A stretch of DNA of 37,034 nucleotides from Desulfonatronovibrio sp. (lineage in GTDB: Bacteria > Desulfobacterota > Desulfovibrionia > Desulfovibrionales > Desulfonatronovibrionaceae), in NCBI GenBank assembly GCA_007121655.1, contig SKKD01000087.1:1-37034 (forward strand), read 5' to 3'. How positions within the stretch are numbered: the first letter of the stretch is position 1; every line of letters starts with the position of its first letter. Below the pieces are notes generated by a model. That model ran no database searches. It worked only from the letters and a program-made list of their open reading frames with translations, and was not told the DNA's origin. This document shows positions 2,855 through 36,442 of this stretch, in pieces. Position numbers and translations under genes: made by a program.

Positions 2855-2994
2855 GAATTATATCCTGAGCCTGTATTTGCTGCAGCGGGATTTATTTTCA
2901 AATTATTGAATTCGTTCTTTTACTCTGTATAGTCCGGAATCTCAGTGCCCGGTCTTTCTCAACTCCATAAAGGACACAAAGATCACCCGAAAAC

Positions 2995-5186: not shown

Positions 5187-5297
5187 GGGCAATCAATCTG
5201 ACTTCGCCCGGACAAAGAAATGGCCAGGCTTGATTTCCTGTTCTCCACAACCTCTCACTTTGCCAACGTTCTTAATGAATAGACTTGCATGGCTGTG

Positions 5298-6593
5298 CTA
5301 GGTCAATCCCAACTTTTTTTTAACCAGGTTCATGAACGTATCGCCGCGCTCCTGATAGTCGGCAAATAGATCAAAGCTCGATGTGCCCGGAGAAAGCAAA
5401 AAGGTATCCCCGGAAGCCGACTCTGAAAGAGCTTTGTTAACGGCCGGTTCCAGAGTATGGAAATATTCCATTGATGCCGCATTTTTCCAGGCTTTTTCAA
5501 AAACATCCCTGCCTGCTCCAAAGAGATATATCTTGGCCACCTTGCTGCGTATCAAGGAAGTTAGTTCTGAAAAATCCCCCCCCTTGTATACTCCTCCGGC
5601 AAAAAGCTTTATGGGCGCCGGGAAGGCCTGAAGGGCCGCCGACATTGCCGAGACAGTAGTGGCCTTGGAGTCGTTGACAAAAATTTTACCTTCGTACTTC
5701 AAAAAAACTTCCTGCCTGTGACCAGGCGCGGAAAAATCATTAAGGGCCGATGAAAACAGACTTTCATCCATTCCAAAATATTTGCAGGCCAGGAAAGCTG
5801 CTTCCATATTAGCCTGATTGTGTTCCCCGGTCAGGGCGGGACAGGAAAACCTCTTGGAGGGTGCAAAGTATACCCGTCTGGAATTGAGGATGCCCAGGCT
5901 TTCCATCTCCTGCTTTAGCTCCAGGGCTATAACTGCGAGGTCTTCCTCTTTCTGCCGGGCAAAAAGACGGGTCTTGGCCCGGAAGTATTCTTCCCTGCTG
6001 CTGTGGTGATCAAGATGATTGGTTGAAAAATTTAGAAAAACCCCCACCCGGGGATGAAACCCGCTGCAACCTTCAAGTTGAAAACTGCTTACCTCCAGCA
6101 CAAGGATGTCGCTGCTGTACCCGCCCAATACATAATCCCCGAGAGGTACACCAAGATTGCCTCCGGCAAATACTTTCTTGCCCATCTTTTCAAGGGCGTG
6201 GGCTATGAGCATGGTGGTCGTGGTTTTCCCATTGGTCCCGGTAACAGCTATAATGGGCTCATGAGTAAACCATGAAGCCAGTTCAAGTTCGGAAAAAATC
6301 TTTGCATTACCCGGAATTAATTTTTCCATGCTCCGGACGGGAATTCCCGGACTGACTATTACCATGTCCGCGTCCCGGAAGTGCTCTTTTTTGTGTTCTC
6401 CGATGATAGGTTCTGCCATTGAAAGATTAAACCTGGTCAGAGATTTTATATCAAACCGTTCGTTTTTTTCCAGGATCCGGACCTTTGCACCAAGTTCAAT
6501 GGCCAGGGCTGCGGCCGAGAGACCGGATCTGCCTGCTCCAACCACAACCACGTTGTGGCCTTTAAGCTGTTCTGAATGGATAAGTTCTTTCAT
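5298..6593 (-). CDS. murD: UDP-MurNAc-L-alanine--D-glutamate ligase MurD
   Basis: Cytoplasmic Mur ligase adding D-glutamate to UDP-MurNAc-L-Ala. 431 residues, close to the family norm of about 440. The N-terminal Rossmann motif is VVVGAGRSGLSAAALA (15-30). The ATP loop is VTGTNGKTTTT (about 117-127), followed by FLNFSTNHLDHH and the C-terminal NDSKATTVSAM and LLSPGTSSFDLF motifs typical of MurD. It lies between two intergenic gaps, 105 bases to ftsW and 196 bases from mraY; the latter contains a 10-bp stem inverted repeat. The ribosome site is weak (GGACAT directly before the ATG). Confidence 0.97.
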   Translation of the reverse strand: MKELIHSEQLKGHNVVVVGAGRSGLSAAALAIELGAKVRILEKNERFDIKSLTRFNLSMAEPIIGEHKKEHFRDADMVIVSPGIPVRSMEKLIPGNAKIFSELELASWFTHEPIIAVTGTNGKTTTTMLIAHALEKMGKKVFAGGNLGVPLGDYVLGGYSSDILVLEVSSFQLEGCSGFHPRVGVFLNFSTNHLDHHSSREEYFRAKTRLFARQKEEDLAVIALELKQEMESLGILNSRRVYFAPSKRFSCPALTGEHNQANMEAAFLACKYFGMDESLFSSALNDFSAPGHRQEVFLKYEGKIFVNDSKATTVSAMSAALQAFPAPIKLFAGGVYKGGDFSELTSLIRSKVAKIYLFGAGRDVFEKAWKNAASMEYFHTLEPAVNKALSESASGDTFLLSPGTSSFDLFADYQERGDTFMNLVKKKLGLT

Positions 6594-6705
6594 ATGTCCG
6601 TTATCTGTTATCTGCTTTCCGGCTGCTACAGTCTGCCCGGCAATTGTTTGTCGAATTATCTTTATGCTGAATCATCACCCGGCTGTAAAAGCGGTGCAGG
6701 GAAAT

Positions 6706-6746
6706 GACAGAGTACGGAATCCGCGGCCTCTGCTCAGTACTCTGTC
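6706..6746. repeat. Perfect 10-bp inverted repeat in the mraY-murD spacer
   Basis: GACAGAGTAC at 6706-6715 is matched by its exact reverse complement at 6737-6746, with a 21-base loop that contains CCGCGG. It sits in the 196-base spacer of the dcw operon. There is no T-run after the stem on the minus strand, so it does not look like a standard terminator. It may be an mRNA processing or stabilising hairpin, but this is inference. Confidence 0.6.
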
Positions 6747-6789
6747 CTTATTCCCCAGTCTTCTTCCTTCTGCCTCTAACATCTGTCGA

Positions 6790-7866
6790 TCACCTCAGCT
6801 TAAGCGTACTCAGGGCTGCCAAGGCAAATAATATGGATAAAATCCAAAATCTTATGATGATTTTTGATTCAGGAATCCCTTTAAGCTCAAAATGATGATG
6901 AAGGGGAGCCATGCGAAATATTCTTTTTCCTCCGCTCATCTTGAAATATCCCACCTGAAGGATCACCGACAGGGCTTCTATGACAAACAAACCGCCGACA
7001 ATTACCAGCAGCAGTTCCTGCTTGCACAAAACTGCAATGAAGCCGAGAGTTCCTCCCAGGCTGATACTCCCCGTGTCGCCCATGAAAATCTGGGCCGGAT
7101 AGGCGTTGAACCATAAAAAACCAAGGCCCGCGCCGACCATGGCTCCGCAGAATACCGTAACCTCGCCGATGTTGGGAATATAGGGAACCTGCAGGTAGGT
7201 GGCGATCTGTGAATGGCCAGAAACATAGACAAACACCGACAGACAGGCCGCGCTGACAATAAACGGACCAATGGCCAAACCATCAAGACCGTCAGTCAGG
7301 TTGACTCCGTTGGATGCCCCCACCATGACCAGCACTGCAAAGGGTATATAAAATAAATACAGATCAGGCCTGATACCTTTGAAAAAGGGAATCAGAAGCT
7401 CTGTGCTATATCCAGGCAGTGTAAGAAGTACCGATACCGCACCCAGAGCGATGACGCTTTGACCGAGAAGTTTCCCTGTAGCCCTCAGACCCTTGTTGTT
7501 TTTTTTCACCACTTTGAGATAGTCGTCAAAAAAGCCCACCAGGAAAAAACCAAGAAAAACAAATATGGTCAGCCAGAGATAGATATTGGTCAGATCACCC
7601 CATAATAAAATACTGACAAGCATGCTGAAGGCGATAAGCAGCCCGCCCATCGTGGGGGTGCCCTGCTTGCCCTTATGTTCGGGTCCGTCATCCTGCACAT
7701 ATTGTCCGCACTTTATATTCTTCAGCCAGCTGATAAACCGGGGACCCAGCCAGATGCTTATAATCAGAGCGGTAAGCAAAGCATATATGCTTCTGAAGGT
7801 TATATATCTGAAGACATTAAATACGCTTATGTCTTCACTTAACGGATACAGCAGGTGGTAAAGCAT
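6790..7866 (-). CDS. mraY: Phospho-MurNAc-pentapeptide transferase MraY
   Basis: Polytopic inner-membrane enzyme that moves phospho-MurNAc-pentapeptide from UDP to undecaprenyl phosphate, giving lipid I. 358 residues with about ten membrane segments, as expected. Conserved loops are visible: [15 protein letters not shown] (about 61-75), the FFDDYLK aspartate pair, [24 protein letters not shown] and the histidine cluster [11 protein letters not shown] near the C-terminus. Upstream is a 141-base gap to murF containing a short GGGGA/TCCCC hairpin. Downstream is the 196-base spacer before murD. Confidence 0.97.
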
Positions 7867-8007
7867 CCTTGTCCTCTTTAACTATTCAAAGCCGTTATGG
7901 GGAATGTCTCCCCTTCTAACCGGTTATGGGTGAGTCGTTCAGCAAAATTGTAAAATCCAATGACGATTAATGATTCCTCTCCGAGCAGGAAGCCGACTCA
8001 ATACCTT

Positions 8008-9405
8008 CTAATTTTTGTCACAGTCTTCCGGGTCATTTGCCCCGGAATTCCATTCCCTGAAACAGGCAACATACCTTTCCATGCCCATGTTTCTGGAACC
8101 TTTGAACAACACAACTCCACCGGGATAATCCAGCCGGTCAAGGATGGATCTGAAGTGTTCGGGATTTAGTATTTCATGAAAATGCTTTCTTGTTTGCTGA
8201 TCCAGTCCGGCTCTGACATTTTCGGCGTTTTTTCCCTGAAAAAACACACCCTGACAATCAACACTTGATATCTCCCTGCCAAGGTCCTGATGGGCTTTGG
8301 CCTCAGTATGGCCAAGCTCTCCCATGTCTCCCACAACTAAAAAAAGATTTCTCTGTCCAGCCAGATTGCGGGCGGAATTAACCGCCCGGATCATGGACAG
8401 GGGGTTTGCGTTGTAGGTATCATCAATAATGGTCCATGAACCGAAGTTCCCTACACAAAACCTCTGTTCAGGAAAGCTGAATTTTTCAAGTCCTTCAATG
8501 ATCCGGACGGGCGCCATTCCCGACTGTCTGGCCACTGCCCATGCAGCGCCGATATTCTCGCAGTATTGCTCTCCACCGGGCACGGATTTAAACTGAATAC
8601 TGTCTTCGCCGTCCCGCACCTGATAATGACCGGATTTCAAATAGTTTACTTTATAATCGGCCGGATTGTCAGAGCATGAGAACCAGACCGGATTAATATG
8701 GGGTCTTGACTTAAGTTCCTGTTCAAGAAGAGCGTAGTCCCTGCAGACGAACGCCTTCTTTGGACCTTGCAGATGATCCAGGATTTTTGCCTTGGATTTT
8801 GCAACACCCTCAAGCGTGCCCAGACCCTGCAAGTGGCACGGACCGATGTTAAGAATCACAGCCAGGTCAGGGCAGGCAATTTCCCCCAGTTCATCCATGT
8901 CTGTTGGTTTGTTTATTCCAAGTTCCAGAATCCAGAAATCCTCATCTCCGGAAAATTTTAATATGGATAAGGGCAGGCCTATCTGATTGTTCCAGTTTTT
9001 ATAGTTTTTGCCCACCTGATAATCAATCCCCAGGATATCCGACAGAATCTCCTTGGTGATGGTTTTCCCGGCTGAACCGGTAACGGCTATGACCTTCCTT
9101 GCCTTTACCATTCTCCAGTATCTGCCCAGCCTGCCAAGAGCTCTCAGAGTATCCTCAACCAATAATACAGGGCTCCCCGAGGAGGGCATCGGGTGGTGGG
9201 ATACAATAGCTGCCGCACCATTTCTTGAAGCCTGTCCGGAAAAATTATGTCCGTCCATTTTCTGCCCGCAGAGACAGATAAACAAATCCCCTTGCCTAAC
9301 CAGCCTGCTGTCGGTCTGAACATTGGTCACCACCGTCTTTTCAGAGCCGTTCAGATCGCCCACACTTTTCAGGGCAAAAGAGATTTCTTCCAGAGTCAGT
9401 TTCAT
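8008..9405 (-). CDS. murF: UDP-MurNAc-tripeptide--D-Ala-D-Ala ligase MurF
   Basis: Cytoplasmic Mur ligase that adds D-alanyl-D-alanine to the UDP-MurNAc tripeptide, completing the pentapeptide. 465 residues, normal length. The P-loop is VTGSAGKTITKE (about 108-119), followed by the MurF pattern NNQIGLPLSIL and, in the C-terminal half, DDTYNANPLSM and GDMGELG. The gene overlaps the end of murE by 4 bases (ATGA), so it is probably translationally coupled. No ddl gene lies in this cluster, so D-Ala-D-Ala must come from a ligase encoded elsewhere. Confidence 0.96.
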   Translation of the reverse strand: MKLTLEEISFALKSVGDLNGSEKTVVTNVQTDSRLVRQGDLFICLCGQKMDGHNFSGQASRNGAAAIVSHHPMPSSGSPVLLVEDTLRALGRLGRYWRMVKARKVIAVTGSAGKTITKEILSDILGIDYQVGKNYKNWNNQIGLPLSILKFSGDEDFWILELGINKPTDMDELGEIACPDLAVILNIGPCHLQGLGTLEGVAKSKAKILDHLQGPKKAFVCRDYALLEQELKSRPHINPVWFSCSDNPADYKVNYLKSGHYQVRDGEDSIQFKSVPGGEQYCENIGAAWAVARQSGMAPVRIIEGLEKFSFPEQRFCVGNFGSWTIIDDTYNANPLSMIRAVNSARNLAGQRNLFLVVGDMGELGHTEAKAHQDLGREISSVDCQGVFFQGKNAENVRAGLDQQTRKHFHEILNPEHFRSILDRLDYPGGVVLFKGSRNMGMERYVACFREWNSGANDPEDCDKN

Positions 9406-10853
9406 TTTAATACCGCATTCAAAGCATTTTTCAGCTCTTGAACATCTTTGAAGGGGCTTTTGATCCCTTTCACTTCCTGATATGTTTCGTGGCCTTTTCC
9501 AGCCACTAACAGAGCGTCGCCCGGTTTCATGAAATTTACCGCCATTTCTATGGCTTTTCTGCGGTCCGGTTCAATGATGAGCTTTCTGCAGCCGTTTAAG
9601 CCTGGTCTTATATCTTCAATAATATCGATGGGTTCTTCATCCCTGGGATTATCCGAAGTCAGAAAGACAACATCAGACAATGAGGCAACGGCCATCCCCA
9701 TGAGCGGCCTTTTGGATTTATCCCTGTTGCCTCCGCATCCAAAGAGAACAATAAGTCTGTCAAAATCAAGAGACTTGAGGGAATGACAGACATTTTTCAA
9801 CGCGTCCGGTGTATGGGCATAATCCACGTAAATATCCAGATTGCATTCATTCTCGACTTTTTCCAGGCGGCCGGGAGTCTGTCCCGAAGCTTCAAGACAG
9901 ACAAAATGTTCCGGATCAAGGCCCAGAGACAGGGCAGCTCCCTGGGCTGCCAACAGATTGGAGCCGTTATGCCTGCCGGTAAGCTGTGAGTTGATGATCC
10001 ATTTTTTATCCCGATACAAGCACTCCATGGTTATTCCTGTCCGGTCATTTTGAAGAAGCCTGCCCTTTAATTTTACAGATCCTGATTCCCTGAAACCGAA
10101 ACTTATGGCCCCGGATATGGATTTTAAAAGTATTCTGCCATGTTCATCATCGGCGTTGATAACCGCCTTGAAGGACTCTTTTCTTTGAGGACTTAAGAAA
10201 AGCTTTGACTTGGCCTGAAAGTATTTCTGCATATCCTCATGAAAATCGAGATGATCCTGGGACAGGTTTGTGAACACTCCGGCGTCAAAATCTATCCCGG
10301 CAACCCTGTCCTGAGCAAGGGCATGTGAGGATACTTCCATTATTACCATTTCTACTCCGTCTTTGTCCATCAGGGAAAGCATTTCATGCAGTCTCAAGCA
10401 GTCAGGGGTGGTCATGGATGCCTCAATTACCTTGTCGGCCCAGCGGTAATTGACGGTCCCGATTGTTCCGGTCTTAAAGCCGCTGCTCTGGAGAATATGT
10501 TCTAGTAGATAGCTGGTTGTGGTCTTGCCGTTTGTTCCGGTAATGCCGATTATTGCAAGCTTTAATCTGTCAGTATTGTATAGAGCCCTGGCCAGCTCTC
10601 CCAGGGCAAGGGCAGGGTCTTCATGACCCAGTATTTTTTTGCCGGGAAACCTGTCAATCTCGGAGTAGTCGGCTATCACCCACGAGGCTCCTTTTTCCAG
10701 AGCGTCAGGAATAAACCGGGCCCCGTTGAACCTGGTTCCGGGCAGGGCAACGAAAATATCTCCGGGCTCAACAAGGCCTGAATGAGTTTTTACCGGCCTG
10801 CCTTTCCTGGCTTCGTTTATGAGTTGTGCAAAATCCATAATTCCACCTGTCAT
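9402..10853 (-). CDS. murE: UDP-MurNAc-L-Ala-D-Glu--meso-diaminopimelate ligase MurE
   Basis: Cytoplasmic Mur ligase adding the third stem residue. 483 residues. The P-loop is ITGTNGKTTTSYLLE (about 103-117), then MEVSSHAL and the YAHTPDAL motif. The motif DNPRDEEP in the C-terminal domain is the one known to select meso-diaminopimelate rather than lysine, so the peptidoglycan is predicted to be DAP-type. The ATG at 10853 overlaps the ftsI stop (4 bases). A second ATG at 10838 (MDFAQL) has a better-placed AGGTGG, so the true start may be five codons later. It overlaps murF by 4 bases. Confidence 0.96.
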   Translation of the reverse strand: MTGGIMDFAQLINEARKGRPVKTHSGLVEPGDIFVALPGTRFNGARFIPDALEKGASWVIADYSEIDRFPGKKILGHEDPALALGELARALYNTDRLKLAIIGITGTNGKTTTSYLLEHILQSSGFKTGTIGTVNYRWADKVIEASMTTPDCLRLHEMLSLMDKDGVEMVIMEVSSHALAQDRVAGIDFDAGVFTNLSQDHLDFHEDMQKYFQAKSKLFLSPQRKESFKAVINADDEHGRILLKSISGAISFGFRESGSVKLKGRLLQNDRTGITMECLYRDKKWIINSQLTGRHNGSNLLAAQGAALSLGLDPEHFVCLEASGQTPGRLEKVENECNLDIYVDYAHTPDALKNVCHSLKSLDFDRLIVLFGCGGNRDKSKRPLMGMAVASLSDVVFLTSDNPRDEEPIDIIEDIRPGLNGCRKLIIEPDRRKAIEMAVNFMKPGDALLVAGKGHETYQEVKGIKSPFKDVQELKNALNAVLK

Positions 10854-12805
10854 GATTCACTAAGGCGCAAGATTACCTTCCCGCCGTTCTCGCTAAAGCT
10901 TTCACCCGGTGCCGGAACCTGATCCCTGACCATTACTCCGCGGCCTTCAAGAACAGGGACAATCCCGGCGCGCAAGAGATTTTCCACTGCCTCCCTGAGA
11001 GATTCTCCACGCAAGTCGGGCATTTCATTTCCCGGGGGAACCCGGTCTCTTCTGTGGTTCACGTTGAACCTGGCATTTTCGGTTGACCTGTCTGTCTGGG
11101 CAGTCTCAATGACCTGGCCCGGAATATTTCTAAGTTTCAGACCCCGGCCTGAAGAAATGATACTGTTTCCAATCCCGGCAAATACAGGGGCAGCCACCAC
11201 TCCTCCATAATGCTGGGGAGAAGGTTCATCAATGATGGCCATTATCATATATTCAGGCTCAAGAGCCGGAATAAAGCCTACAAACGAAGCCACATATTTA
11301 TCGCCGTATCCTCCCCTGGGTGAAGCCTTTTGAGCGGTTCCGGTCTTTCCGCCCACTTCAACGCCGGATATTCTGGCCATGGTTCCTGTTCCGTCCATTT
11401 CAACCGAATCCCTGAGCATCGATAAAACCTGCCTGCTCACTTCCCTGGAAAAGACACTTTGTCCGGCAGGAGACTGCCTGCTGTCATCTCTGATCAGCTT
11501 AAGCTCGGTAAATCTGCCTTCATTGGCAAGGGTCAGATAAGCTCTGGCCAATTGCAGAGTGGTGGAGGCCATGCCCTGTCCAAAGGAAATTGCAGCCAGA
11601 TCCATCTTGCTCCAGGCATGGGGAGGTCTTAATATCCCCCTTCCCTGTCCGGGGATGGGCAGATTTGTACCAGTTGTAAACCCGAGCCTGTCAAGATATT
11701 GAAAATACTGATCCTGTCCAAGGTCAAGACCGATTTTAGCCGAGCAGATATTGCTGGAATACCTGAGTACTCTGTTAAGGGTAAGCCAGCCGTGTCCCTT
11801 GACGTCCTTTATTTCGTTTCTGCCCAGACGCCACCTTCCATTTTCACAAAAATACAGAGAGTCGCTTTTTGCGATTCCCTCTTCCAGAGCAGCAGCCATT
11901 AGAAAAGGCTTCAGTGTAGAACCGGGTTCGATGAGATCCACCGCCGCCCTGTTGCGCCAGATTGAAGAATGAGAACGCTGAAAATTATTGGGATCAAAAA
12001 ATGGATAAGAAGCCCACGCCAGAATTTCTCCGCTGGGAACATGAACCACGAGAGATATGCCGGAGACGCCGTTGTGGCTTGTTACAGCTGACGCCAGATA
12101 TCTTTCTGCAGCGAATTGAATCTCAGAGTCAATAGTCAGCACCACGTCCTGACCGTCCATCTTCCTGGTGGGATCCTGGGGCAAAAGAGACATCTTGTGT
12201 CCGGAAGCATCCCTTTGCAGGACAATAATCATTTCCGCGCCGGCAAGCTCTTCATTGAGGGACCTCTCCAGGCCCTCGAGTCCCTGATTGTCGATGCCCA
12301 CAAAGCCCAGAACCTGTCCCAGCATGTGTCCCCTGGGGTAAACCCTGGAATGTTCGTCTATGATGAATACTCCGGGAATATTTAGCTCGGCCAGTCTATG
12401 TGCTGTTCTGTCGCTGACCTTTCTTGTAATCCAGACAAAATTCCTTTTCTGATTCAAAAGGGTCTTCATCCGGTTGGGGTCATCCTCCAAAACAGCGGCA
12501 AGGTCAATGGCGGCAGAATGGTTATTCTCAATCAGAAAAGGATTGGCGTATACAGATTTGCTTCTGACACTTTGCGCAAGAACTACATTGTTCCGGTCGA
12601 ATATCTCTCCTCTTTTTCCGGTGATCTTTTCCCTGCTGTAATATTGGCGGTCGGCCATGGCAGCCAGTTCTTCCCCCTGGATGACCTGTACAAACAGGGC
12701 TCTGCACCATAAACCCATCCAGGCAATAGCAAACAGGCCAAGGATCAGGATAATCTTTATCCTTGTTCTGTCTTTTACCTTACTTTTGGGAATTACTTTA
12801 GCCAT
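10850..12805 (-). CDS. ftsI: Septal class B penicillin-binding protein FtsI (PBP3) with PASTA domain
   Basis: Bitopic inner-membrane D,D-transpeptidase that crosslinks septal peptidoglycan, partner of FtsW. 651 residues. It has a basic N-tail, a membrane segment (about 17-40) and a PBP dimerisation region (RGEIFDRN, 65-72). In the transpeptidase domain the catalytic S296-T-L-K299, SSN (350-352) and KTGT (487-490) are all intact. A single PASTA domain occupies about 593-651 (MPDLRGESLREAVENLL onward). PASTA-bearing FtsI is known from several Gram-negative lineages outside the enterics. It follows ftsL after 6 bases and overlaps murE by 4. Confidence 0.96.
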   Translation of the reverse strand: MAKVIPKSKVKDRTRIKIILILGLFAIAWMGLWCRALFVQVIQGEELAAMADRQYYSREKITGKRGEIFDRNNVVLAQSVRSKSVYANPFLIENNHSAAIDLAAVLEDDPNRMKTLLNQKRNFVWITRKVSDRTAHRLAELNIPGVFIIDEHSRVYPRGHMLGQVLGFVGIDNQGLEGLERSLNEELAGAEMIIVLQRDASGHKMSLLPQDPTRKMDGQDVVLTIDSEIQFAAERYLASAVTSHNGVSGISLVVHVPSGEILAWASYPFFDPNNFQRSHSSIWRNRAAVDLIEPGSTLKPFLMAAALEEGIAKSDSLYFCENGRWRLGRNEIKDVKGHGWLTLNRVLRYSSNICSAKIGLDLGQDQYFQYLDRLGFTTGTNLPIPGQGRGILRPPHAWSKMDLAAISFGQGMASTTLQLARAYLTLANEGRFTELKLIRDDSRQSPAGQSVFSREVSRQVLSMLRDSVEMDGTGTMARISGVEVGGKTGTAQKASPRGGYGDKYVASFVGFIPALEPEYMIMAIIDEPSPQHYGGVVAAPVFAGIGNSIISSGRGLKLRNIPGQVIETAQTDRSTENARFNVNHRRDRVPPGNEMPDLRGESLREAVENLLRAGIVPVLEGRGVMVRDQVPAPGESFSENGGKVILRLSES

Positions 12806-12811
12806 TTGTCA

Positions 12812-13093
12812 TTAATCCCGGATTTTTCTGATTTGACTGTCTGCCGGGGTGGACATGCCCATTGCCTCACCTAACTCTTTCAGCCTGTAAGGCGAAAGCA
12901 GGTTGTTTTTTTCTATGGTCAGCTTTGTCCTTAACTCCTGGTTCTCCTGGTATTGGTTTTGAAGCCTCTGCATCTGATAAGACAGGTCAACCCTTTCAAT
13001 ATTCACCCACACCTTGGCCAGAGCCAGCAAAAAGGTCAGAGCCAGAACTATTGCCAGCCAACCCCATGACCGGAATCCGGTTTTTTTGCTCAT
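12812..13093 (-). CDS. ftsL: Cell division protein FtsL
   Basis: Small bitopic divisome protein that forms a coiled-coil complex with FtsQ and FtsB. 93 residues: short cytoplasmic tail, one membrane segment (about 11-32), then a helical stretch rich in Q/E/L/K (about 33-75) consistent with a coiled coil, ending in a polar tail. Sequence similarity within this family is low, so the call rests on size, topology and the position between rsmH and ftsI, where ftsL is normally found. It lies 47 bases downstream of rsmH and 6 bases before ftsI. Confidence 0.88.
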   Translation of the reverse strand: MSKKTGFRSWGWLAIVLALTFLLALAKVWVNIERVDLSYQMQRLQNQYQENQELRTKLTIEKNNLLSPYRLKELGEAMGMSTPADSQIRKIRD

Positions 13094-13140
13094 GTTCAGG
13101 AATTCCTTTTATCCGCCTTTGCCTTCAATCTCTTGCTTTC

Positions 13141-14079
13141 TTAAATCTTTTCCGCGGCTCTAAGTTTGGCGCTTCTGCTTCTGGAATTTTCCCTGATCTC
13201 CTCTTCTGATGGAATAAGAGGCTTTTTGGTTAATATTTTTAACTTTTTCTCATGGCCGCACCCGCAAACAGGATATCCCGGAGGACATAAACAGCCCGAA
13301 GCTTCGCGCTTAAAAAAATGTTTAACAATCCTATCCTCCAGGGAATGGAAGGATATGACGACGATCCTCGCTCCCGGGCCAAGCTGGTCAACTATTTTAT
13401 TTAAGAAAAATTCCAGGTTTTCAAGTTCTTTATTCACAGCTATGCGCAATGCCTGAAAGGTCTTGGTTGCCGGATGATTTCTGGCCAGAGCCCTTCTTTT
13501 TGCAGGGTAGGCATTTTCAACTATCTCTGCCAGTTCAAGTGTCGTACGGATTCCCTTTTTTTCCCGGGCATCAATTATTGCCCTGGCAACCCTTCCAGCC
13601 ATAGGTTCTTCACCATATTGACCGATTATTCTTTTCAGCTCGAAGTAGGATATCTTTTCCAGAAGACGGGCGGCTGAAACAAATCCCGCACCTTTGCCCA
13701 TTCTCATGTCCAAAGGTCCGTCTATGATGAAACTGAATCCCTTCTCCGCCTTTTCAAGCTGCAGGGAAGATACCCCGAGATCAAGTACAGCTCCGTCCAG
13801 CTTATCCCATTCAAGCTTCTCCTGATAGTAATCAAAATTTCTGTATGAATCCTGAAAAATAAATGTCCTGTCTTCAAATTCAGCCAGTCTTTCTCTGGAC
13901 AGGTTAACAGCATCCAGGTCAAGGTCAGTGCCCAGAACAAAGCACTCTCCGCCGCAGGCTTCCAGAATCTTCAGGGCATGCCCTCCGAGCCCGAGTGTAC
14001 CGTCAAGATATCTTCCACCAGGACGGGGTCTTAGAAAATCAATGACCTCCCGGGCCATTACAGTTTGATGAATGCTCAT
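13141..14079 (-). CDS. rsmH: 16S rRNA (cytosine1402-N4)-methyltransferase RsmH
   Basis: SAM-dependent methylase that makes N4-methylcytosine at 16S rRNA position 1402 (formerly MraW). 312 residues, normal size. The SAM-binding glycine motif reads GTLGLGGHA (28-36). Further family motifs are DGAVLDLGVSSLQLE, FSFIIDGPLDMRM and, near the C-terminus, VISFHSLEDRIVKHFF. A CxCP-like segment (CLCPPGYPVCGCG) is also typical of RsmH. Second gene of the dcw cluster, starting 2 bases after the mraZ stop. Confidence 0.97.
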   Translation of the reverse strand: MSIHQTVMAREVIDFLRPRPGGRYLDGTLGLGGHALKILEACGGECFVLGTDLDLDAVNLSRERLAEFEDRTFIFQDSYRNFDYYQEKLEWDKLDGAVLDLGVSSLQLEKAEKGFSFIIDGPLDMRMGKGAGFVSAARLLEKISYFELKRIIGQYGEEPMAGRVARAIIDAREKKGIRTTLELAEIVENAYPAKRRALARNHPATKTFQALRIAVNKELENLEFFLNKIVDQLGPGARIVVISFHSLEDRIVKHFFKREASGCLCPPGYPVCGCGHEKKLKILTKKPLIPSEEEIRENSRSRSAKLRAAEKI

Positions 14080-14081
14080 AA

Positions 14082-14537
14082 TTAAAGTCTGAGTTCAAAA
14101 CCGTTTACAGCCAGGGAATCCATTATTTCGTCAAAATCCTGCTCCATTTTTCTTCGCTGTTCTTCAAACCTGGACAAAGCCCAGATTTCGAATTTTCTGC
14201 CGACTCCCGCCAGGATAACTTCCTTATTAATTTCAGCGTATGAACGCAGATATGGAGGGACCAGAATTCTTCCCTGCTTATCAAGGGTGACCGGTGATGC
14301 TCCGGATATAAAAAATCTGTGAAAATCCCTGAATTTTCTGTTGGCCATATTCAATTTACCAAAGCTCTTCTCAATTTCCTCCCATTCAGGAAAAGGGTAG
14401 GCCACAACACAATCATCAAAGTTTGTAATCATGATGTTGCCGTCTGGTGACTTTTCCATTATCTTATCCCTAAATTCGGGAGGCAGCATTAGCCTGCCCT
14501 TGGGATCGATGCTTCTTTGGCTGTGTCCTCTGAACAT
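14082..14537 (-). CDS. mraZ: Transcriptional regulator MraZ
   Basis: DNA-binding AbrB/SpoVT-like protein that represses its own dcw operon in bacteria where it has been studied. 151 residues with the two expected swapped-hairpin repeats: DPKGRLMLPPEFRD (12-25) and DKQGRILVPPYLRS (about 86-99). The start (MFRGHSQ) is fixed by family alignment. No usable ribosome site precedes it, because the bases upstream are taken by three direct repeats that look like MraZ's own operator. First gene of the cluster. Confidence 0.96.
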   Translation of the reverse strand: MFRGHSQRSIDPKGRLMLPPEFRDKIMEKSPDGNIMITNFDDCVVAYPFPEWEEIEKSFGKLNMANRKFRDFHRFFISGASPVTLDKQGRILVPPYLRSYAEINKEVILAGVGRKFEIWALSRFEEQRRKMEQDFDEIMDSLAVNGFELRL

Positions 14538-30133: not shown

Positions 30134-30194
30134 ACTTTATGAAGTAACTTTAAACTTATCAGCAATTATTCCAAAATATTATATTTTTATCATA

Positions 30195-30394
30195 CAGATT
30201 GCTTCTGTCGCTTCGCTCCCTCGCAATGACAAATGGAGGCGTAACCAAGCCGTGACTATTGGTTTGTCGTGCAGATTGCTTCTGTCGCTTCGCTCCCTCG
30301 CAATGACAGGTGAGGCGTAACTAAGCCGTGACTATTGGTTTGTCATGCAGACTGCTTCTGTCGCTTCGCTCTCTCGCAATGACAGGTGAGGCGA
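30195..30394. repeat. Three tandem copies of a 76-77 base REP-like unit
   Basis: Copies start at 30195, 30272 and 30348; the third is truncated after about 47 bases. Each begins CAGATTGCTTCTGTCGCTTC and runs through GCTCCCTCGCAATGACA; the first two continue with a near-identical 40-base tail ending TTTGTCRTG. The core, read in reverse (TGTCATTGCGAGGGAGCG then GAAGCAATCT), is like a dispersed repeat I recall from many bacterial genomes. Non-coding; no plausible protein spans it. Confidence 0.88.
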
Positions 30395-30408
30395 TGCTCC
30401 CTGGTCTC

Positions 30409-30438
30409 TTCTTCCTCTCTTCCTCTCTTCCTCTCTTC
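30409..30438. repeat. 8-base polypyrimidine tandem repeat
   Basis: About three and a half copies of CTTCCTCT in a row, all C/T on the plus strand. This is the kind of tract that can slip in replication or form triplex DNA. It sits between the REP-like copies and the 15-base tandem repeat. Confidence 0.8.
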
Positions 30439-30440
30439 AA

Positions 30441-30556
30441 AATTCCGGAATTCCTCAATTCCGAAATTCCTCAATCCTGAATTCCTCAATCCTGAATTCC
30501 TGAATCCTGAATTCCTGAATCCTGAATTCCTGAATCCTGAATTCCTGAATTCCGGC
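30441..30556. repeat. 15-base tandem repeat (AATTCCTGAATCCTG unit)
   Basis: Four consecutive units lie at 30480-30539: the first carries TCAAT in place of TGAAT, the other three are exact. A partial fifth begins at 30540, and two to three diverged units precede it (TCAAT variants at 30449 and 30465). Because 15 is a multiple of three, one plus-strand frame stays open as repeated NPEFL, but it has no ribosome site and no family, so I treat it as non-coding. Confidence 0.88.
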
Positions 30557-30711: not shown

Positions 30712-33627
30712 CTAAAGTATTCTGAACCTGTTTTCCAGTCCTAACTCCGGGGCCGCCTTTTCCACCTGTTCTTCGCCCCCCATTACGCAGATCATGCCCG
30801 GATCATTTTTTAATCCGAAGTCCAGGGCTTTGCCGAATTCTCTGAAATCATCCAGGCTGGTTTCAAGAATCTGCTCCCTTACCTTTTGACGGTGCTGGTC
30901 GGTGATTCCCGCCATATATCTGGCCAGGGAGGAAAATCCTTTGGCATCCGGCAGCTGATAGGAGTCCATTTCACCGATGGCCCCGATAACGGCTTTTTCC
31001 ACTTCATCCTTGTCCAGTTCGTCCCGGATCAGATAAGCGCCCGAACCCAGAAATGCCTTTATGGTTTCCAGGATATTGGGGTCGCGGTAGGATGCAAAGG
31101 CCACGAAGTTGGACAGGTAGTCATAACTGCCGAATGCCCCGTACGCGCCTCCCTGTACCCTTATCTGGTCCCAGAGCCAGCTGGCCCGCAGGAATCTGCT
31201 CGCCACCAGGCTGGAGCCGTGAAATTTATAACCCGATGACTTGAGATCAACTGATTTTCCCACATAGTTTACCTGGGCGGGAATGAACATGCCTTCATTT
31301 CCATGCATGCAACATGATACCCAGGTTGAAGGGGAAATATTATGCCGGGGTATAAGGCTGAAAAAGTTGTCCGTGGAGTTTTGATTCAGGTCAAAAAGGC
31401 TTTGTTCGGAAGTAATATTAACCAGCATGGCGTCCTTGTGGAAAAGGAGAAATTTTATTTCCTCCAGGTCCATTCTGACCCTGTCCCAATCCTTGTCTAT
31501 GAGTCTGGCAAGGTGTCTGAGAAAAAGCAGATAGCTTATTCCCGACATATGTTCCTGGGACCAGTCAGCCTCATTGTACCTTGCTTTCAGGCGCATGCTC
31601 ACGAATCTGTGTCCGGCCGGGACAAGGCTTTGCTCCAGGGAGGCTTTTTCTTCAAGGACTATCTGTCTGAATCTCTCTTTATTGTCCAGGTTGACGTCCA
31701 TGATGATGTCTTTCAGGATGTTGTACAATTCCTCTATGTTTTCGGGAAGTGACTTGCCTCTCAAAAAAAGGCGGCAGGCGCTGTGGTCCTGTCCCATTAT
31801 AGTATGCGCGAATATCGCCGGAGAAATTCCGCCGGTTTTTTGCCTGATCCTGGTGGTCAGCCTGACAAAATCCTGCTTTTTTGTGCCCATTTCCACCAGA
31901 GCCCGGCCGAACAGCGGCGCATAGGAAAGGTACCTCTGGGGAAGGAAGTGTAAGTCGAATCCAAGATCCAGGTAGTAAATTCCGGCTGTGGGCTGTGGAT
32001 GAAACAGGACTTTGACCTGATTAATTTCTGTTTCCTCTCTCGTGGTAATCTTAATTTCCTTTTCCAGATCATTGCGCCCGAGTCTTGGTATCCTGGCCAG
32101 TTCCTCGGGGTCGTCCTGCGCGGACTGGACTTTTTTAAGCTCCCGGGTGTTTTCAATTACTTTTTCCAGCTCTTCTTCTGACAGGCGCTGCTTAACCCGG
32201 TCAAGAGCGGAATTCTCTTTTTCCTGGAGCCTGGCCTCAAGGTCGGGATCAGGCTCGAGAACAACAACCGATTTATGGGAATTGTCCAGAAGGTAATCTT
32301 TGATCAGATTCTCAAATATCTTTTCATTATTTTCCAGCCGCTTCTTAATCTCATCAAGCACAGGTGAAAACTCAACCAGGGTAAAGGGGCTTCCATCATA
32401 AAGCCAGGTGGTCAGAGCCCGGAACATCACAGCCATTCCCCTGGGAAAAGAGCCCGTGTTATTTTCGCGCAGGGCGAACTCAAGACTGTTCAGGGCGGCC
32501 ATGATTATTTCAGGATCAATCCCTTGCCCGGCCAGATCTTTCAGGGTGGACTCTATCAGCTTTTCCACCTTGTCCAGATTTCTGGATTCCACTCCCATAA
32601 GGCCGGTGGAATAATACATCTGCAGAATGTCCGTCTCCAGTCCCGTCCCTGTCAGATCTTCTCCGAGGCCGGATTCGATGAGCACCCTGCGCAGTGGCGA
32701 GGCAGGCATACCGGTCAGGATAAAATCCAGAATGCGCAGGCTGAGGTTCAGCTGGGCATCAAAGGTGTCCGGCAAAAGCCAGTTGATCGTCAGGTAACAT
32801 TTGGGATCGTTTTCTCCCGAAGAGCTGTACTGTTTGACTATTTTCCGGTTAAGACTTTTTTTACTCTGAGTTATAACAGTTGAATCAACTTCAAGCTTGT
32901 CAAATTCGTCCAGATACACAGCCAGTTTATTCAGCCTTTCGTCCTCAGGATTATCCCCGTAAAAAAATATAAAAGCATTGGATGGATGGTAAAACTTTTT
33001 ATGGAAATCAATAAAGTCTTCATAGGTCAGGGTGGGTATTTTTTCCGGATCCCCTCCGGCGTCAAAGCCATAGGTGGAGTCGGGGAATATTGACTGCTGG
33101 GAATAATCGGCCAGCAGACTTTCAGGTGAAGAGTACGCGCCTTTCATTTCATTAAAAACTACGCCTTTGTATTTAAGGGGAGATCCGGGCTGTTCCAGTT
33201 CATAGTGCCAGCCTTCCTGTTCAAAGATATGTCTGGAAATACTGGGATAAAATACGGAGTCCAGATAAACGTCCATGAGGTTGTAAAAGTCCTGTATGTT
33301 CTGGCTGGCCACCGGATAGCAGGTCTTGTCAGGAAATGTGACCGCGTTGAGGAAGGTCTGCAAAGAACTCTTGAGGAGTTCGACAAAAGGTTCCTTTACT
33401 TTGTATTTGCGTGACCCGCACAGCACCGAATGCTCCAGAATATGGGGGACTCCGGTATTGTCCCGGGGAGGTGTGCGGAAATTTATACTGAAGACCTTGT
33501 TCTCATCATCATTGAGCAGGGAAAGAATTCTGGCTCCTGTTTTTTTATGTACAAAAAGCCTGGCCCTGGAGTTGATCTCCGAAATTTGCTTTTCTTCCAT
33601 CAGATCATATTTTTCAGAATAACTCAC
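30712..33627 (-). CDS. M16C zinc metalloprotease, presequence-protease (PreP) type
   Basis: Large two-half peptidase of the insulinase superfamily; characterised relatives degrade unfolded peptides inside a closed chamber. 971 residues, the normal single-chain M16C size. The inverted zinc motif H62-I-L-E-H66 and the third ligand Glu160 (VVFNEMKGAYSSPES) are present. A middle M16C-associated helical region (about 450-540, charged) links to the inactive C-terminal half. No signal peptide, so a cytoplasmic location is expected. Translation starts at GTG (33627), supported by AGGAGG 6 bases upstream. A single-gene unit, convergent with the M23 gene across the repeat cluster. Confidence 0.93.
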   Translation of the reverse strand: MSYSEKYDLMEEKQISEINSRARLFVHKKTGARILSLLNDDENKVFSINFRTPPRDNTGVPHILEHSVLCGSRKYKVKEPFVELLKSSLQTFLNAVTFPDKTCYPVASQNIQDFYNLMDVYLDSVFYPSISRHIFEQEGWHYELEQPGSPLKYKGVVFNEMKGAYSSPESLLADYSQQSIFPDSTYGFDAGGDPEKIPTLTYEDFIDFHKKFYHPSNAFIFFYGDNPEDERLNKLAVYLDEFDKLEVDSTVITQSKKSLNRKIVKQYSSSGENDPKCYLTINWLLPDTFDAQLNLSLRILDFILTGMPASPLRRVLIESGLGEDLTGTGLETDILQMYYSTGLMGVESRNLDKVEKLIESTLKDLAGQGIDPEIIMAALNSLEFALRENNTGSFPRGMAVMFRALTTWLYDGSPFTLVEFSPVLDEIKKRLENNEKIFENLIKDYLLDNSHKSVVVLEPDPDLEARLQEKENSALDRVKQRLSEEELEKVIENTRELKKVQSAQDDPEELARIPRLGRNDLEKEIKITTREETEINQVKVLFHPQPTAGIYYLDLGFDLHFLPQRYLSYAPLFGRALVEMGTKKQDFVRLTTRIRQKTGGISPAIFAHTIMGQDHSACRLFLRGKSLPENIEELYNILKDIIMDVNLDNKERFRQIVLEEKASLEQSLVPAGHRFVSMRLKARYNEADWSQEHMSGISYLLFLRHLARLIDKDWDRVRMDLEEIKFLLFHKDAMLVNITSEQSLFDLNQNSTDNFFSLIPRHNISPSTWVSCCMHGNEGMFIPAQVNYVGKSVDLKSSGYKFHGSSLVASRFLRASWLWDQIRVQGGAYGAFGSYDYLSNFVAFASYRDPNILETIKAFLGSGAYLIRDELDKDEVEKAVIGAIGEMDSYQLPDAKGFSSLARYMAGITDQHRQKVREQILETSLDDFREFGKALDFGLKNDPGMICVMGGEEQVEKAAPELGLENRFRIL

Positions 33628-33863
33628 TATATTCCTCCTGGTTGGATTATTTTTTTGTCTGGAGTACGCAAAAACTTTTGAATTATAGGACTTTTTTCCC
33701 CCAAGCTCAACCTTTGTTTAGCTGACCGACACGGCTGCCGGTTTCCTTGTCCTACACAAAACTGGTTACATAAGTCAGGAATAAGTAGAGAGAGACAATT
33801 GTCATTGCGCCATTTTGCGAAGGGCGGAGATAGAAAATCCAGCAAAAGAGCATAAACCTAAAT

Positions 33864-34520
33864 ATGAATAATATCTTCAAAATGTTTCACACTGGAAAGA
33901 ACAATTTTATTCCCGCGCTTCTGATAGTTTCCGGACTGGTTTTGTCCGGCGCCTGGGGTTGTACGTCCAGGTCACCCGAAGCCCTTCTTAATAAGCATCA
34001 GGTTGCATTACCGGAAATTGATAATCTGGTTGTTTGCGTGTCTTATGGATGCCGGCACAGAGAAACAACTCTTATCGATTCATTGGAGTGGGAGCAGGTG
34101 AGGGAAATGATGGAGTCGGGTGACGGGGATTCCCCTGAACATGAGAGACAGCGGGTATCCTGGACTATAGGTTTGCTGGAAAGGATCGTCGGACCCAAGG
34201 TGGGTACGGAACATAACAAGGGCCGCAACAGGGAAGGACCTCCTGGTTCAAGGCAACTGGACTGCATTGCCGATACGGTAAACACCACTACTTATCTGTT
34301 GCTGCTTTCCAGAGAAAACCTCCTGATTAATCATGAGGTGGTTGAACCGGCGCGAAAGGGTCCTCTTCGTCTCAGTTACTGGCATAAAACAGCAGTAATG
34401 GAAGAAAAAGGTTCAGGAAAGCGGTTTGCCGTGGATCCCTGGTTTTTTGACAACGGCCGGCCGGCAGCTGTCCTGCCGCTGGAGGAATGGAGGTCCGGAG
34501 ATTACCCGGTTGCTGAATAA
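33864..34520 (+). CDS. Exported protein of unknown family, possible transglutaminase-like fold
   Basis: 218 residues. The N-terminus (about 10-32) is a hydrophobic export signal ending LVLSGAWGC; Cys33 could be lipidated, but Trp before the Gly makes a poor lipobox. The mature part has CVSYGCRHRE (58-67), then Cys134 at the start of a helix (QLDCIADTVNTTTYL), His174 (YWHKTAVM) and Asp191 in FAVDPWFFDNG. The order Cys, His-strand, D-P-W matches the catalytic layout of transglutaminase-like and related papain-fold enzymes. That is inference from pattern; I do not recognise the family. No strong ribosome site is visible. It is divergent from the M16C gene. Confidence 0.75.
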   Translation: MNNIFKMFHTGKNNFIPALLIVSGLVLSGAWGCTSRSPEALLNKHQVALPEIDNLVVCVSYGCRHRETTLIDSLEWEQVREMMESGDGDSPEHERQRVSWTIGLLERIVGPKVGTEHNKGRNREGPPGSRQLDCIADTVNTTTYLLLLSRENLLINHEVVEPARKGPLRLSYWHKTAVMEEKGSGKRFAVDPWFFDNGRPAAVLPLEEWRSGDYPVAE

Positions 34521-34756
34521 GAGCAACGCGAAACTGAAGCACCATGATATATAGGTAAGTGCTTGCTGAAGACCGGGTATGAGCTTAGTAAGGCCCGTGG
34601 ATGATATTATGGTGTCTACCTCCACTGCCTTCCACAGACAGTCAAAAAGATCCCTTTTACGCACTGCTTTTCCCCGGTATCAAAGACTTATCTGGACATC
34701 GGCAGAAATTCTGTTATTAAAAACAAAGTTAATTTAAAAAACCTCAGGGAGGCATT

Positions 34757-35353
34757 ATGTCAAATGCTCTATGGATTGTTCTGGTGGTGCTGCTTGTCCT
34801 CTTTGTTTTATTTACGCTTAAGACATATAACCGTCTTGTGAAACTGAGGAACCGTTACAAAAACGCTTTTTCCCAGATAGACGTTCAGCTCAAGCGCAGA
34901 TACGACCTTATTCCCAACCTGGTGGAAACAGCCAGATCATACATGAAACATGAACGGGAAACCCTTGAAAATGTGGTCAAGGCCCGAAATCAGGCCCTGG
35001 ATGCCTCGAAACAGGCAAGTTCAGATCCCGGAGCGCCGGACTTAATGAAGAAACTGGCCGGGGCCGAAGGCATGCTTTCGGGTTCACTTGGCAGACTGTT
35101 CGCCCTGGTTGAGAATTACCCTGATCTTAAGGCCAACCAGAATATGATGCAGCTATCCGAGGAACTGACAAGCACGGAAAACAAGATTTCCTTTGCCAGG
35201 CAAGCCTATAACGATGCTGTAATGACTTACAACAATTACGTTCAATCCATGCCCCAGGCTGTTTTTGCTCCCGCCCTCGGATTCAGGGAAGCTTCTTTTC
35301 TGGAATTTGACAGAGAGGAAATCAAAGAAGCCCCCAAAGTTTCTTTTTCGTAA
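34757..35353 (+). CDS. lemA: LemA family protein
   Basis: 198 residues, usual LemA size. An N-terminal membrane segment (about 5-22) is followed by the family signature TYNRLVKLRNRYKNAFSQID and VQLKRRYDLIPNLVETA. Long helices follow, with ENYPDLKANQNMMQLSEELT. The C-terminus FAPALGFREASFLEFD is also typical. LemA proteins are anchored in the membrane with a helical domain; their function is not established. GGGAGG lies 6 bases upstream. The next gene, 60 bases on, is a zinc protease of the HtpX/M48 type, a pairing seen in many bacteria. Confidence 0.95.
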   Translation: MSNALWIVLVVLLVLFVLFTLKTYNRLVKLRNRYKNAFSQIDVQLKRRYDLIPNLVETARSYMKHERETLENVVKARNQALDASKQASSDPGAPDLMKKLAGAEGMLSGSLGRLFALVENYPDLKANQNMMQLSEELTSTENKISFARQAYNDAVMTYNNYVQSMPQAVFAPALGFREASFLEFDREEIKEAPKVSFS

Positions 35354-35413: not shown

Positions 35414-36442
35414 ATGGATTTTTTCGAACATAAGGAACAGGCCATCAAAATCAGCAGATACCTGGTATTGCTTTTTATTTTGGGCACGATCGGGGTAATT
35501 GTAATAATTTATCTGTTTATTTTCGGCTATTTCTATTTTCATTTCGGTTCACTCAGCCAGGCCTGGCAGTCAATACATATTCATTGGCCGGAACTGGCTG
35601 TTTTCGGCGCTGTTGTTACTCTTGTGATTGTGGGTGGTACTTTTTACCAGGTTTCAAGGCTCAGTAAAGGCGGTTCGGCTGTGGCCGACATATTAAAAGC
35701 CAGGCTGGTTACGGAAAACACCCAGAATCCAGACGAGCAGAAAGCCTTGAATATTGTTCACGAAATGGCCATAGCATCAGGCCTGTCCAAAATTCCCAAA
35801 TTATACATCATGGACGGAGAAGACTCAATCAACGCCTTTGCCGCAGGATGGCGCGAGGATGACGCAGTGATCGGTCTTACTTCGGGGGCAGTAAAACATC
35901 TGGACAGGTCGGAGCTCCAGGCGGTAGTCGGCCATGAAATAAGCCATATTCAAAACGGGGATATGTACCTGAATATAAAGCTCATGGGAATAGTGTTCGG
36001 CCTTCTTGTTCTGACTTATTTCGGCAGCTTTGTTATTCGCAACGCCCTGTACGGCTCCATGATGTCAGGCAGAAGATCAAGGACCGACCCGAGGGCGCTC
36101 ATAGTTTTTATTGTTCTGGGTGTGGGACTGATTGTAGCCGGATTTGTGGGCATGTTGTTCGGCAACATCATCAAGGCTGCAATCTCAAGACAAAGAGAAT
36201 ATCTGGCTGACGCGTCGGCTGTGCAGTTTACCCGCATGCCCGAGGCAATGGAAGGAGCTCTGGTTAAGATCAGGGATATGTCAAAAACGGAAAATAAAAA
36301 CCATCTGAACAATCCCAATGCTGAACAGGCAAGCCATATGTTTTTTACTGAAGCAGTGAGCAGGTTTGAAAGCCTGTTTGCCACTCACCCACCCATCGAG
36401 GAGAGAATAAGACGGATAAATCCCGTCCGCAACAAGATATGA
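35414..36442 (+). CDS. M48 family zinc metalloprotease, HtpX-like
   Basis: Integral-membrane protease; HtpX homologues cleave misfolded membrane proteins. 342 residues, somewhat longer than E. coli HtpX. Two N-terminal membrane segments (about 17-42 and 60-80) are followed by the zinc motif H174-E-I-S-H178 with NGD next to it. Two more membrane segments come next (about 189-208 and 228-253). The third ligand is Glu262 in SRQREYLADASAV. The C-terminal FATHPPIEERIRRI is standard for the family. AGAGGA lies 6 bases before the ATG. It is probably co-transcribed with lemA. Confidence 0.93.
   Translation: MDFFEHKEQAIKISRYLVLLFILGTIGVIVIIYLFIFGYFYFHFGSLSQAWQSIHIHWPELAVFGAVVTLVIVGGTFYQVSRLSKGGSAVADILKARLVTENTQNPDEQKALNIVHEMAIASGLSKIPKLYIMDGEDSINAFAAGWREDDAVIGLTSGAVKHLDRSELQAVVGHEISHIQNGDMYLNIKLMGIVFGLLVLTYFGSFVIRNALYGSMMSGRRSRTDPRALIVFIVLGVGLIVAGFVGMLFGNIIKAAISRQREYLADASAVQFTRMPEAMEGALVKIRDMSKTENKNHLNNPNAEQASHMFFTEAVSRFESLFATHPPIEERIRRINPVRNKI

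What the first reader, a model, noticed from the sequence alone, without database searches (positions are those of the whole stretch)
33864..34520. Exported protein with a Cys-His-Asp pattern like a transglutaminase-type enzyme
Cys134 at a helix start, His174 and Asp191 in a D-P-W context appear in the order and rough spacing of transglutaminase-like/papain-fold catalytic triads, in a protein with an export signal but no recognised family. It might act on peptides or cell wall crosslinks in the periplasm.
Basis: inference. Interest (0 to 1): 0.5.

Follow-up and report, generated by a model that had tools for sequence, protein, structure and literature searches.

The report
Unnamed envelope lipoprotein cysteine enzyme
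This gene encodes an unstudied, probably lipid-anchored envelope protein whose predicted shape and conserved Cys-His-Asp residues make it most likely a cysteine enzyme of the transglutaminase/papain kind, from a family that the protein-family libraries searched do not name and that one phage also carries.

Summary
ORF 33864-34520 (+) encodes 218 aa with an export signal ending in a conserved Cys33, so probably a lipoprotein. Pfam, NCBIfam and PDB sequences give nothing above chance. Relatives were found in 11 further bacterial genomes of the same phylum and on one phage. In 13 aligned sequences (23-65% identical to the window's), 17 of 186 columns are invariant, including Cys134, His174 and Asp191, the only invariant Asp of nine. 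AlphaFold2 of the mature protein is confident (pLDDT 92.1, pTM 0.90) and puts Cys134 at the N-terminus of the core helix, His174 in the second strand after it and Asp191 at the end of the third, the published papain-fold layout. The 50 rows VIA-align printed are all, as far as titles and chains show, proteins of that fold, but Z is modest (3.6-6.0) and Foldseek finds nothing significant. Profile comparison links it neither to LapG/DvhG (C93) nor to Transglut_core. Best reading: a periplasm-facing thiol hydrolase (peptidase or amidase/deamidase). Substrate and activity are unknown; neighbours give no shared clue.

The parts
33864..34520 (+). ORF, 218 aa: transglutaminase/papain-fold probable lipoprotein of an unnamed family
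   Evidence: homologues; alignments
33864..33962 (+). export signal, residues 1-33, ending in Cys33 (probable lipidation site)
   Evidence: hydrophobic segment read from sequence; Cys invariant in 11 of 11 untrimmed bacterial sequences, and present in L072
34035..34052 (+). Cys58-x4-Cys63 pair (CVSYGC), both Cys invariant in 13 of 13; possible disulfide (inference)
34254..34283 (+). active-site segment Q131-L-D-C134 to N140: Gln131, Cys134 and Asn140 invariant in 13 of 13; Cys134 at the start of the core helix
34383..34385 (+). His174, putative general base, in the second strand after the core helix
34434..34442 (+). Asp191-Pro-Trp193: third triad residue (13 of 13) and a nearly invariant Trp (12 of 13)

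Best explanation
The protein is exported, lipidated on Cys33 and held at the periplasmic face of a membrane (probably the outer one). Its mature domain has the papain/transglutaminase fold. Cys134, at the N-terminus of the core helix, is the nucleophile; His174 activates it; Asp191 orients the His. The enzyme would attack an amide (peptide, isopeptide or Gln side chain) of an envelope protein or peptide, form a thioester and release it with water: a thiol hydrolase (peptidase or amidase/deamidase) rather than a crosslinker. Shown here: conservation, predicted fold, placement of the triad in it. Inferred: lipidation, which membrane, catalysis, hydrolysis rather than transfer, and a Cys58-Cys63 disulfide that steadies the N-terminal lobe.
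For: Triad invariant in 13 of 13 sequences, with Asp191 the only invariant Asp of nine, at kept spacing. AlphaFold2 of the mature protein: pLDDT 92.1, pTM 0.90, five models at 91.7-92.1. Layout there: helix 102-118 beginning with Cys134 (mature residue 102); strands 125-136, 140-149 (His174 = 142), 155-159 (Asp191 = 159) and 170-173. This matches the published description: Cys at the helix N-terminus, strands 2 and 3 giving His and a polar group (PMC10318531, passages). VIA-align: all 50 printed entries appear to have this fold, e.g. PNGase Z 6.0, PMT C-terminal region 5.8, Rad4 4.9, TglA 4.8, TGase 3 4.6, LapG 4.4, VASH1 4.4, NAT 4.4, SseI 4.1, menin 3.9. Cys33 conserved.
Against: Z stays below 8, which the tool warns may mean only a common arrangement; Foldseek has no significant hit in either run. 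No sequence or profile link to a known enzyme family; in global mode the true profile scored 0.3 against C93, below the mean 3.5 of 60 column-shuffled copies. Listed fold matches include inactive proteins (Rad4, human menin; PMC10318531 section 10), so fold does not prove activity. The same section calls the nearest cluster 'mostly deamidases/transglutaminases', so hydrolysis rather than transfer is a guess. Side-chain geometry was not measured. No shared neighbour or known substrate.
Confidence: 0.65

Rival explanations
1. A true transglutaminase: Cys134 takes a Gln side chain and passes it to a Lys or other amine, crosslinking envelope proteins or tying proteins to peptidoglycan.
For: Fold neighbours include TglA and TGase 3. 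PMC10318531 (section 10) describes the cluster holding these families as 'mostly deamidases/transglutaminases'. The window's stretch ends in V-D-P, and 19 of 20 Transglut_core loci read D-P-T or D-P-A there.
Against: No Pfam Transglut_core match, no profile similarity (E 0.13, and the alignment does not lay active site on active site). It reads H-K-T-A-V where 17 of 20 Transglut_core loci read H-A-W. Most of the family reads D-S, not D-P (9 of 13). The same cluster also holds peptidases and amidases (C93, C71, PNGase).
Confidence: 0.17
2. A LapG/DvhG-like calcium-dependent periplasmic protease that trims a surface adhesin.
For: Periplasmic side, C-H-D triad, LapG among the fold matches (4fgo, Z 4.4, rmsd 4.6, 118 aligned). 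Homologues L012 and L013 read D-C-E-D around the Cys, as all 16 C93 loci fetched do. The best local C93 profile match, 17 columns, lays Cys on Cys but at E 0.19-0.29. A DvhG protease of this kind works in Desulfovibrio vulgaris (PMC13090378, abstract and passages).
Against: The window's protein reads D-C-I-A-D, without the Glu of the calcium motif; no PF06035 match and none in the whole own genome; profile match not significant, global score below shuffles. By eye no adhesin, type 1 secretion or c-di-GMP receptor gene among the window ORFs listed. Genome G001 has both a C93 match and this protein.
Confidence: 0.08
3. A non-catalytic binding protein that kept the fold, as Rad4 and human menin did.
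For: Several listed fold matches are inactive members (PMC10318531 section 10).
Against: All three triad residues and Gln131 are invariant in 13 of 13 sequences; an inactive family would be expected to lose some (inference).
Confidence: 0.07

Closest known systems
C93/BTLCP periplasmic proteases (LapG, DvhG)
   Same: Exported, papain/transglutaminase fold, Cys-His-Asp order and similar spacing (C to H 35, H to the Asp/Asn taken as third residue 15 in all 16 C93 loci; C to H 37-40, H to D 16-17 here).
   Different: No PF06035 or significant profile match; calcium motif incomplete in the window's protein; probable lipoprotein; invariant Cys58/Cys63 pair; no lap/dvh-type gene cluster recognised by eye in the window.
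Transglut_core enzymes (PF01841; e.g. TglA, animal TGases)
   Same: Fold and triad order; a V-D-P stretch at the third catalytic residue.
   Different: No Pfam or profile similarity; H-A-W absent; a stand-alone 218-aa protein, while the own-genome PF01841 match sits in a 695-aa open frame.
Deamidase/transglutaminase domains of bacterial effectors (PMT C-terminal region, SseI, RavJ)
   Same: Fold matches with rmsd 3.0-4.2 over 96-113 residues (that chain 4xa9_g is RavJ is inferred). RavJ is reported to have transglutaminase activity (PMC12207909, search listing only).
   Different: Those are injected or secreted effectors; this is a probable lipoprotein, and no sequence similarity was found.
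Vasohibins (VASH1/2)
   Same: Fold match 6k81_A, Z 4.4, rmsd 4.6, 116 aligned.
   Different: Vasohibin triad is Cys-His-Ser/Thr (PMC4866520, passages); here it is Cys-His-Asp.

Membership tests
Papain-like/transglutaminase-like cysteine protease superfamily (as described in PMC10318531) | Catalytic Cys at the N-terminus of the core helix | tested here: met
   Helix 134-150 and helix 102-118 of the mature model begin with Cys134
Papain-like/transglutaminase-like cysteine protease superfamily (as described in PMC10318531) | His on core strand 2 and a polar residue on strand 3 | tested here: met
   His174 in the second strand after the helix, Asp191 at the end of the third; description from PMC10318531 passages. 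Sheet order and distances not seen.
Papain-like/transglutaminase-like cysteine protease superfamily (as described in PMC10318531) | Triad residues conserved among homologues | tested here: met
   13 of 13 sequences
Papain-like/transglutaminase-like cysteine protease superfamily (as described in PMC10318531) | Structural similarity to solved members at clear significance | tested here: inconclusive
   The 50 printed VIA-align rows appear to be members, but Z 3.6-6.0; Foldseek not significant
Papain-like/transglutaminase-like cysteine protease superfamily (as described in PMC10318531) | Thiol-dependent catalysis | not testable with these tools
   needs biochemistry
Peptidase C93 / BTLCP (LapG, DvhG) | Match to PF06035 | tested here: not met
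   No hit listed at E<=10 for the window protein or the 8 members of A1; no PF06035 match anywhere in the own genome
Peptidase C93 / BTLCP (LapG, DvhG) | Profile-profile similarity to C93 | tested here: not met
   hhalign against 16 C93 loci: E 0.29 (12 sequences) and 0.19 (13 sequences); global score 0.3, below the mean of 60 shuffles; positive control C93 against Transglut_core E 4e-6, probability 87%
Peptidase C93 / BTLCP (LapG, DvhG) | Calcium-binding D-C-E active-site motif | tested here: not met
   Window reads D-C-I; homologues L012 and L013 do read D-C-E-D; DvhG D316/C317/E318 from PMC13090378 passages
Transglut_core (PF01841) | Match to PF01841 or its profile | tested here: not met
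   No Pfam hit; hhalign against 20 Transglut_core loci E 0.13
Transglut_core (PF01841) | Gln-Lys transamidation | not testable with these tools
   needs biochemistry

The most novel reading that the evidence does not exclude
An unnamed peptidase/amidase family of envelope lipoproteins in Desulfonatronovibrio-like and other bacteria of that phylum, with an N-terminal lobe held by a Cys58-Cys63 disulfide, that has also been taken up by a phage as a membrane-anchored version to modify the host envelope during infection.
Probability: 0.25. Interest if true: 0.55.

Novelty: new member of a known kind. Interest (0 to 1): 0.38.

Why it matters
It would add an unnamed family to a large enzyme superfamily and gives a short list of residues (Cys134, His174, Asp191, Gln131) to test. 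Its patchy presence (12 bacterial genomes seen) and the phage-borne copy hint at a dispensable, mobile envelope function rather than housekeeping (inference). It does not overturn anything known.

Tried and rejected
Weak hits set aside as chance, all below cut-off where one exists: Pfam holin, ATP-grasp, CATASP, ATP-grasp again for L014 and Ser_hydrolase (E 0.038) for the phage copy; PHROG holin and membrane protein; PDB carbonic anhydrase, PARP4, homeobox, YagE. The search of predicted viral structures gave nothing at E<=0.001. The G198 match (E 0.007, query residues 3-47 only) was dropped as a signal-region match. The Azospirillum plasmid hit (E 7) was read and is a different protein without the motifs.

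Gene neighbourhood: the window has a divergent PreP-like M16C peptidase upstream and LemA plus an M48 peptidase downstream. The nearest relative L002 keeps the PreP-like neighbour (by eye) but has an M28 peptidase downstream. UbiD lies beside the L006 gene and, by eye, the L007 gene; L012 and L013 lie near DUF1285 genes and a ComEC-like ORF (recognised by eye). No partner is shared by all, so no operon argument was made. No promoter-like site was found on the + strand at 33600-34800, and the 174 bases before the ORF are single-copy in the genome. Defence: no PADLOC hit in 5 of 5 proteins given.

Relatives outside the phylum were barely tested: the one genome-contig scan used a single protein, which finds close relatives only. 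tblastn of plasmids with five sequences held here and of phages with two found no true relative; three viral-contig scans found only the one phage. I recall similar proteins in Pseudomonadota but could not confirm it. Rows left out of the 13-sequence alignment as copies: L001, L011 (the window), L003 (same contig as L002), L016 and L019-L022 (the same phage places), L048, L069-L071, L073-L075 (genomes already represented). Papers: no paper naming this family was seen in search listings 47, 66 and 67.

Full report
What was checked. The ORF at 33864-34520 (+) encodes 218 aa. The window is a whole contig (G000:C23) of a draft genome given as 89.56% complete. The nearest named relative is in a Desulfonatronovibrio sp. 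MAG (L002, 60% identity in the best segment); that genus is in the order Desulfovibrionales, phylum Thermodesulfobacteriota. The protein has no match above chance in Pfam, none in NCBIfam and none in PDB sequences.

Relatives. Searching 297 genomes of the order gave 9 matches including itself, of which one (G198) is only a signal-region match. A profile search of 395 genomes of the phylum gave 4 including itself. The classes of G343 and G420 gave 2 of 10 and 2 of 26, one of the four new (G679). Genus g33 has it in 3 of 3 genomes. In all, 12 bacterial genomes carry it. Presence is patchy: in the window's own genus G017 (97% complete) and G054 (86%) have no match. Other phyla were barely tested.

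Phage copy. One relative lies on two IMG/VR contigs with identical copies of the stretch searched. The contig (L015) carries a RecT-like protein, a DNA polymerase exonuclease subunit, an HNH endonuclease, an endolysin and Rz-like spanins, so it is a phage. Its copy (ORF 4644-5471, start uncertain, overlapping the end of the HNH ORF) has hydrophobic segments in place of the lipoprotein signal and keeps Cys58, Cys63, Gln131, Cys134, His174 and Asp191. Its membrane topology was not resolved.

Conservation. In 13 sequences (12 bacterial, 1 phage; 23-65% identical to the window's), 17 of 186 mature columns are invariant: C58, C63, E94, R95, E106, Q131, C134, N140, L145, L153, H157, P162, G166, H174, D191, G198, W209. 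H157 is the only other invariant His, in the first strand after the core helix, and so the one residue that could compete as the base. Cys33 is invariant in the 11 untrimmed bacterial sequences.

Structure. The first AlphaFold2 model (8 sequences, full length) had pLDDT 83.7 and pTM 0.79. The second (12 sequences, mature protein) had pLDDT 92.1 and pTM 0.90, the five models within 0.4 of each other. Both put Cys134 at the N-terminus of the core helix, His174 at or just after the start of the second following strand and Asp191 at the end of the third; PMC10318531 (passages and section 10) describes the papain-like core so. VIA-align compared 994 of Foldseek's candidates; it counts 104 with Z>=2, 4 with Z>=5 and none with Z>=8 (five of the printed rows show Z above 5 after realignment). 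The 50 rows printed are PNGase, PMT, Rad4/XPC, TglA, RavJ, TGase 3, LapG, NAT, VASH, the PSL1a/MOA lectins, SseI and menin. Which chain is meant is inferred for four rows (4xa9_g RavJ, 4u65_E LapG, 6j8o_B VASH1, 8ebw_H XPC), and that MOA/PSL1a have this fold is recalled, helped by E-64 and 'papain' in their titles. Foldseek itself has no match at E<=0.001, so the case rests on the uniform list and the triad's layout, not on any single score.

Known families. Compared as profiles, this family does not reach C93 (16 loci; E 0.29 with 12 sequences, 0.19 with 13) or Transglut_core (20 loci; E 0.13). The best local C93 match, 17 columns, lays Cys on Cys, but in global mode the score (0.3) is below the mean (3.5) of 60 column-shuffled copies; as a positive control C93 and Transglut_core find each other at E 4e-6. 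Direct reading shows H-K-T-A-V...F-A-V-D-P-W in the window, H-A-V-L...I/V-L-D/N in the C93 loci, and H-A-W in 17 of 20 Transglut_core loci with D-P-T/A in 19 of 20: similar in plan, different in letters. Two homologues, L012 and L013, read D-C-E-D like all 16 C93 loci. I therefore file it in the superfamily on fold and layout, and in no named family.

Mechanism. Most likely a periplasm-facing thiol hydrolase: Cys134 nucleophile, His174 base, Asp191 orienting residue. Gln131, invariant and three residues before the Cys, may help bind the oxyanion (inference; PMC10318531 notes that most families of the nearest cluster lack a canonical oxyanion residue). Transglutaminase, LapG-like calcium protease and non-catalytic readings are kept as rivals. 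Neighbouring genes in the window include peptidases and LemA, but the arrangement is not shared by relatives, so nothing is built on it.

Verdict. It is a new member of a well-known kind, with unknown substrate and untested activity.

Noticed in passing
L015:4644-5471 (IMG/VR contig IMGVR_UViG_3300024520_004699): A phage carries a membrane-anchored relative of the window protein with the triad intact, overlapping the end of an HNH endonuclease ORF; endolysin and spanin ORFs lie within about 3.3 kb on the other strand.
   Followed up: partly
window 30186-30553: Tandem arrays in the gap between the M23 peptidase gene and the PreP-like gene: a 76-bp unit (2.7 copies, 92% matches) at 30186-30393 and a 15-bp unit TCCTGAATTCCTGAA (7.1 copies) at 30444-30550.
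   Followed up: no
window 30715-33627 (-), 34757-35353 (+), 35414-36442 (+): Neighbours are a PreP-type M16C peptidase (divergent), LemA and an M48 peptidase; of these only the PreP-like one was seen again, by eye, in the closest relative L002.
   Followed up: partly
L012:1498-2115 (-) and L013:1495-2118 (+): These two relatives read Q-M-D-C-E-D around the catalytic Cys, the same D-C-E-D letters as the 16 C93 loci fetched; the other 11 of the 13 sequences do not.
   Followed up: partly
window 615-14537: A run of minus-strand ORFs that reads like a division/cell-wall (mra/mur/fts) cluster; recognised by eye from the translations, not tested.
   Followed up: no
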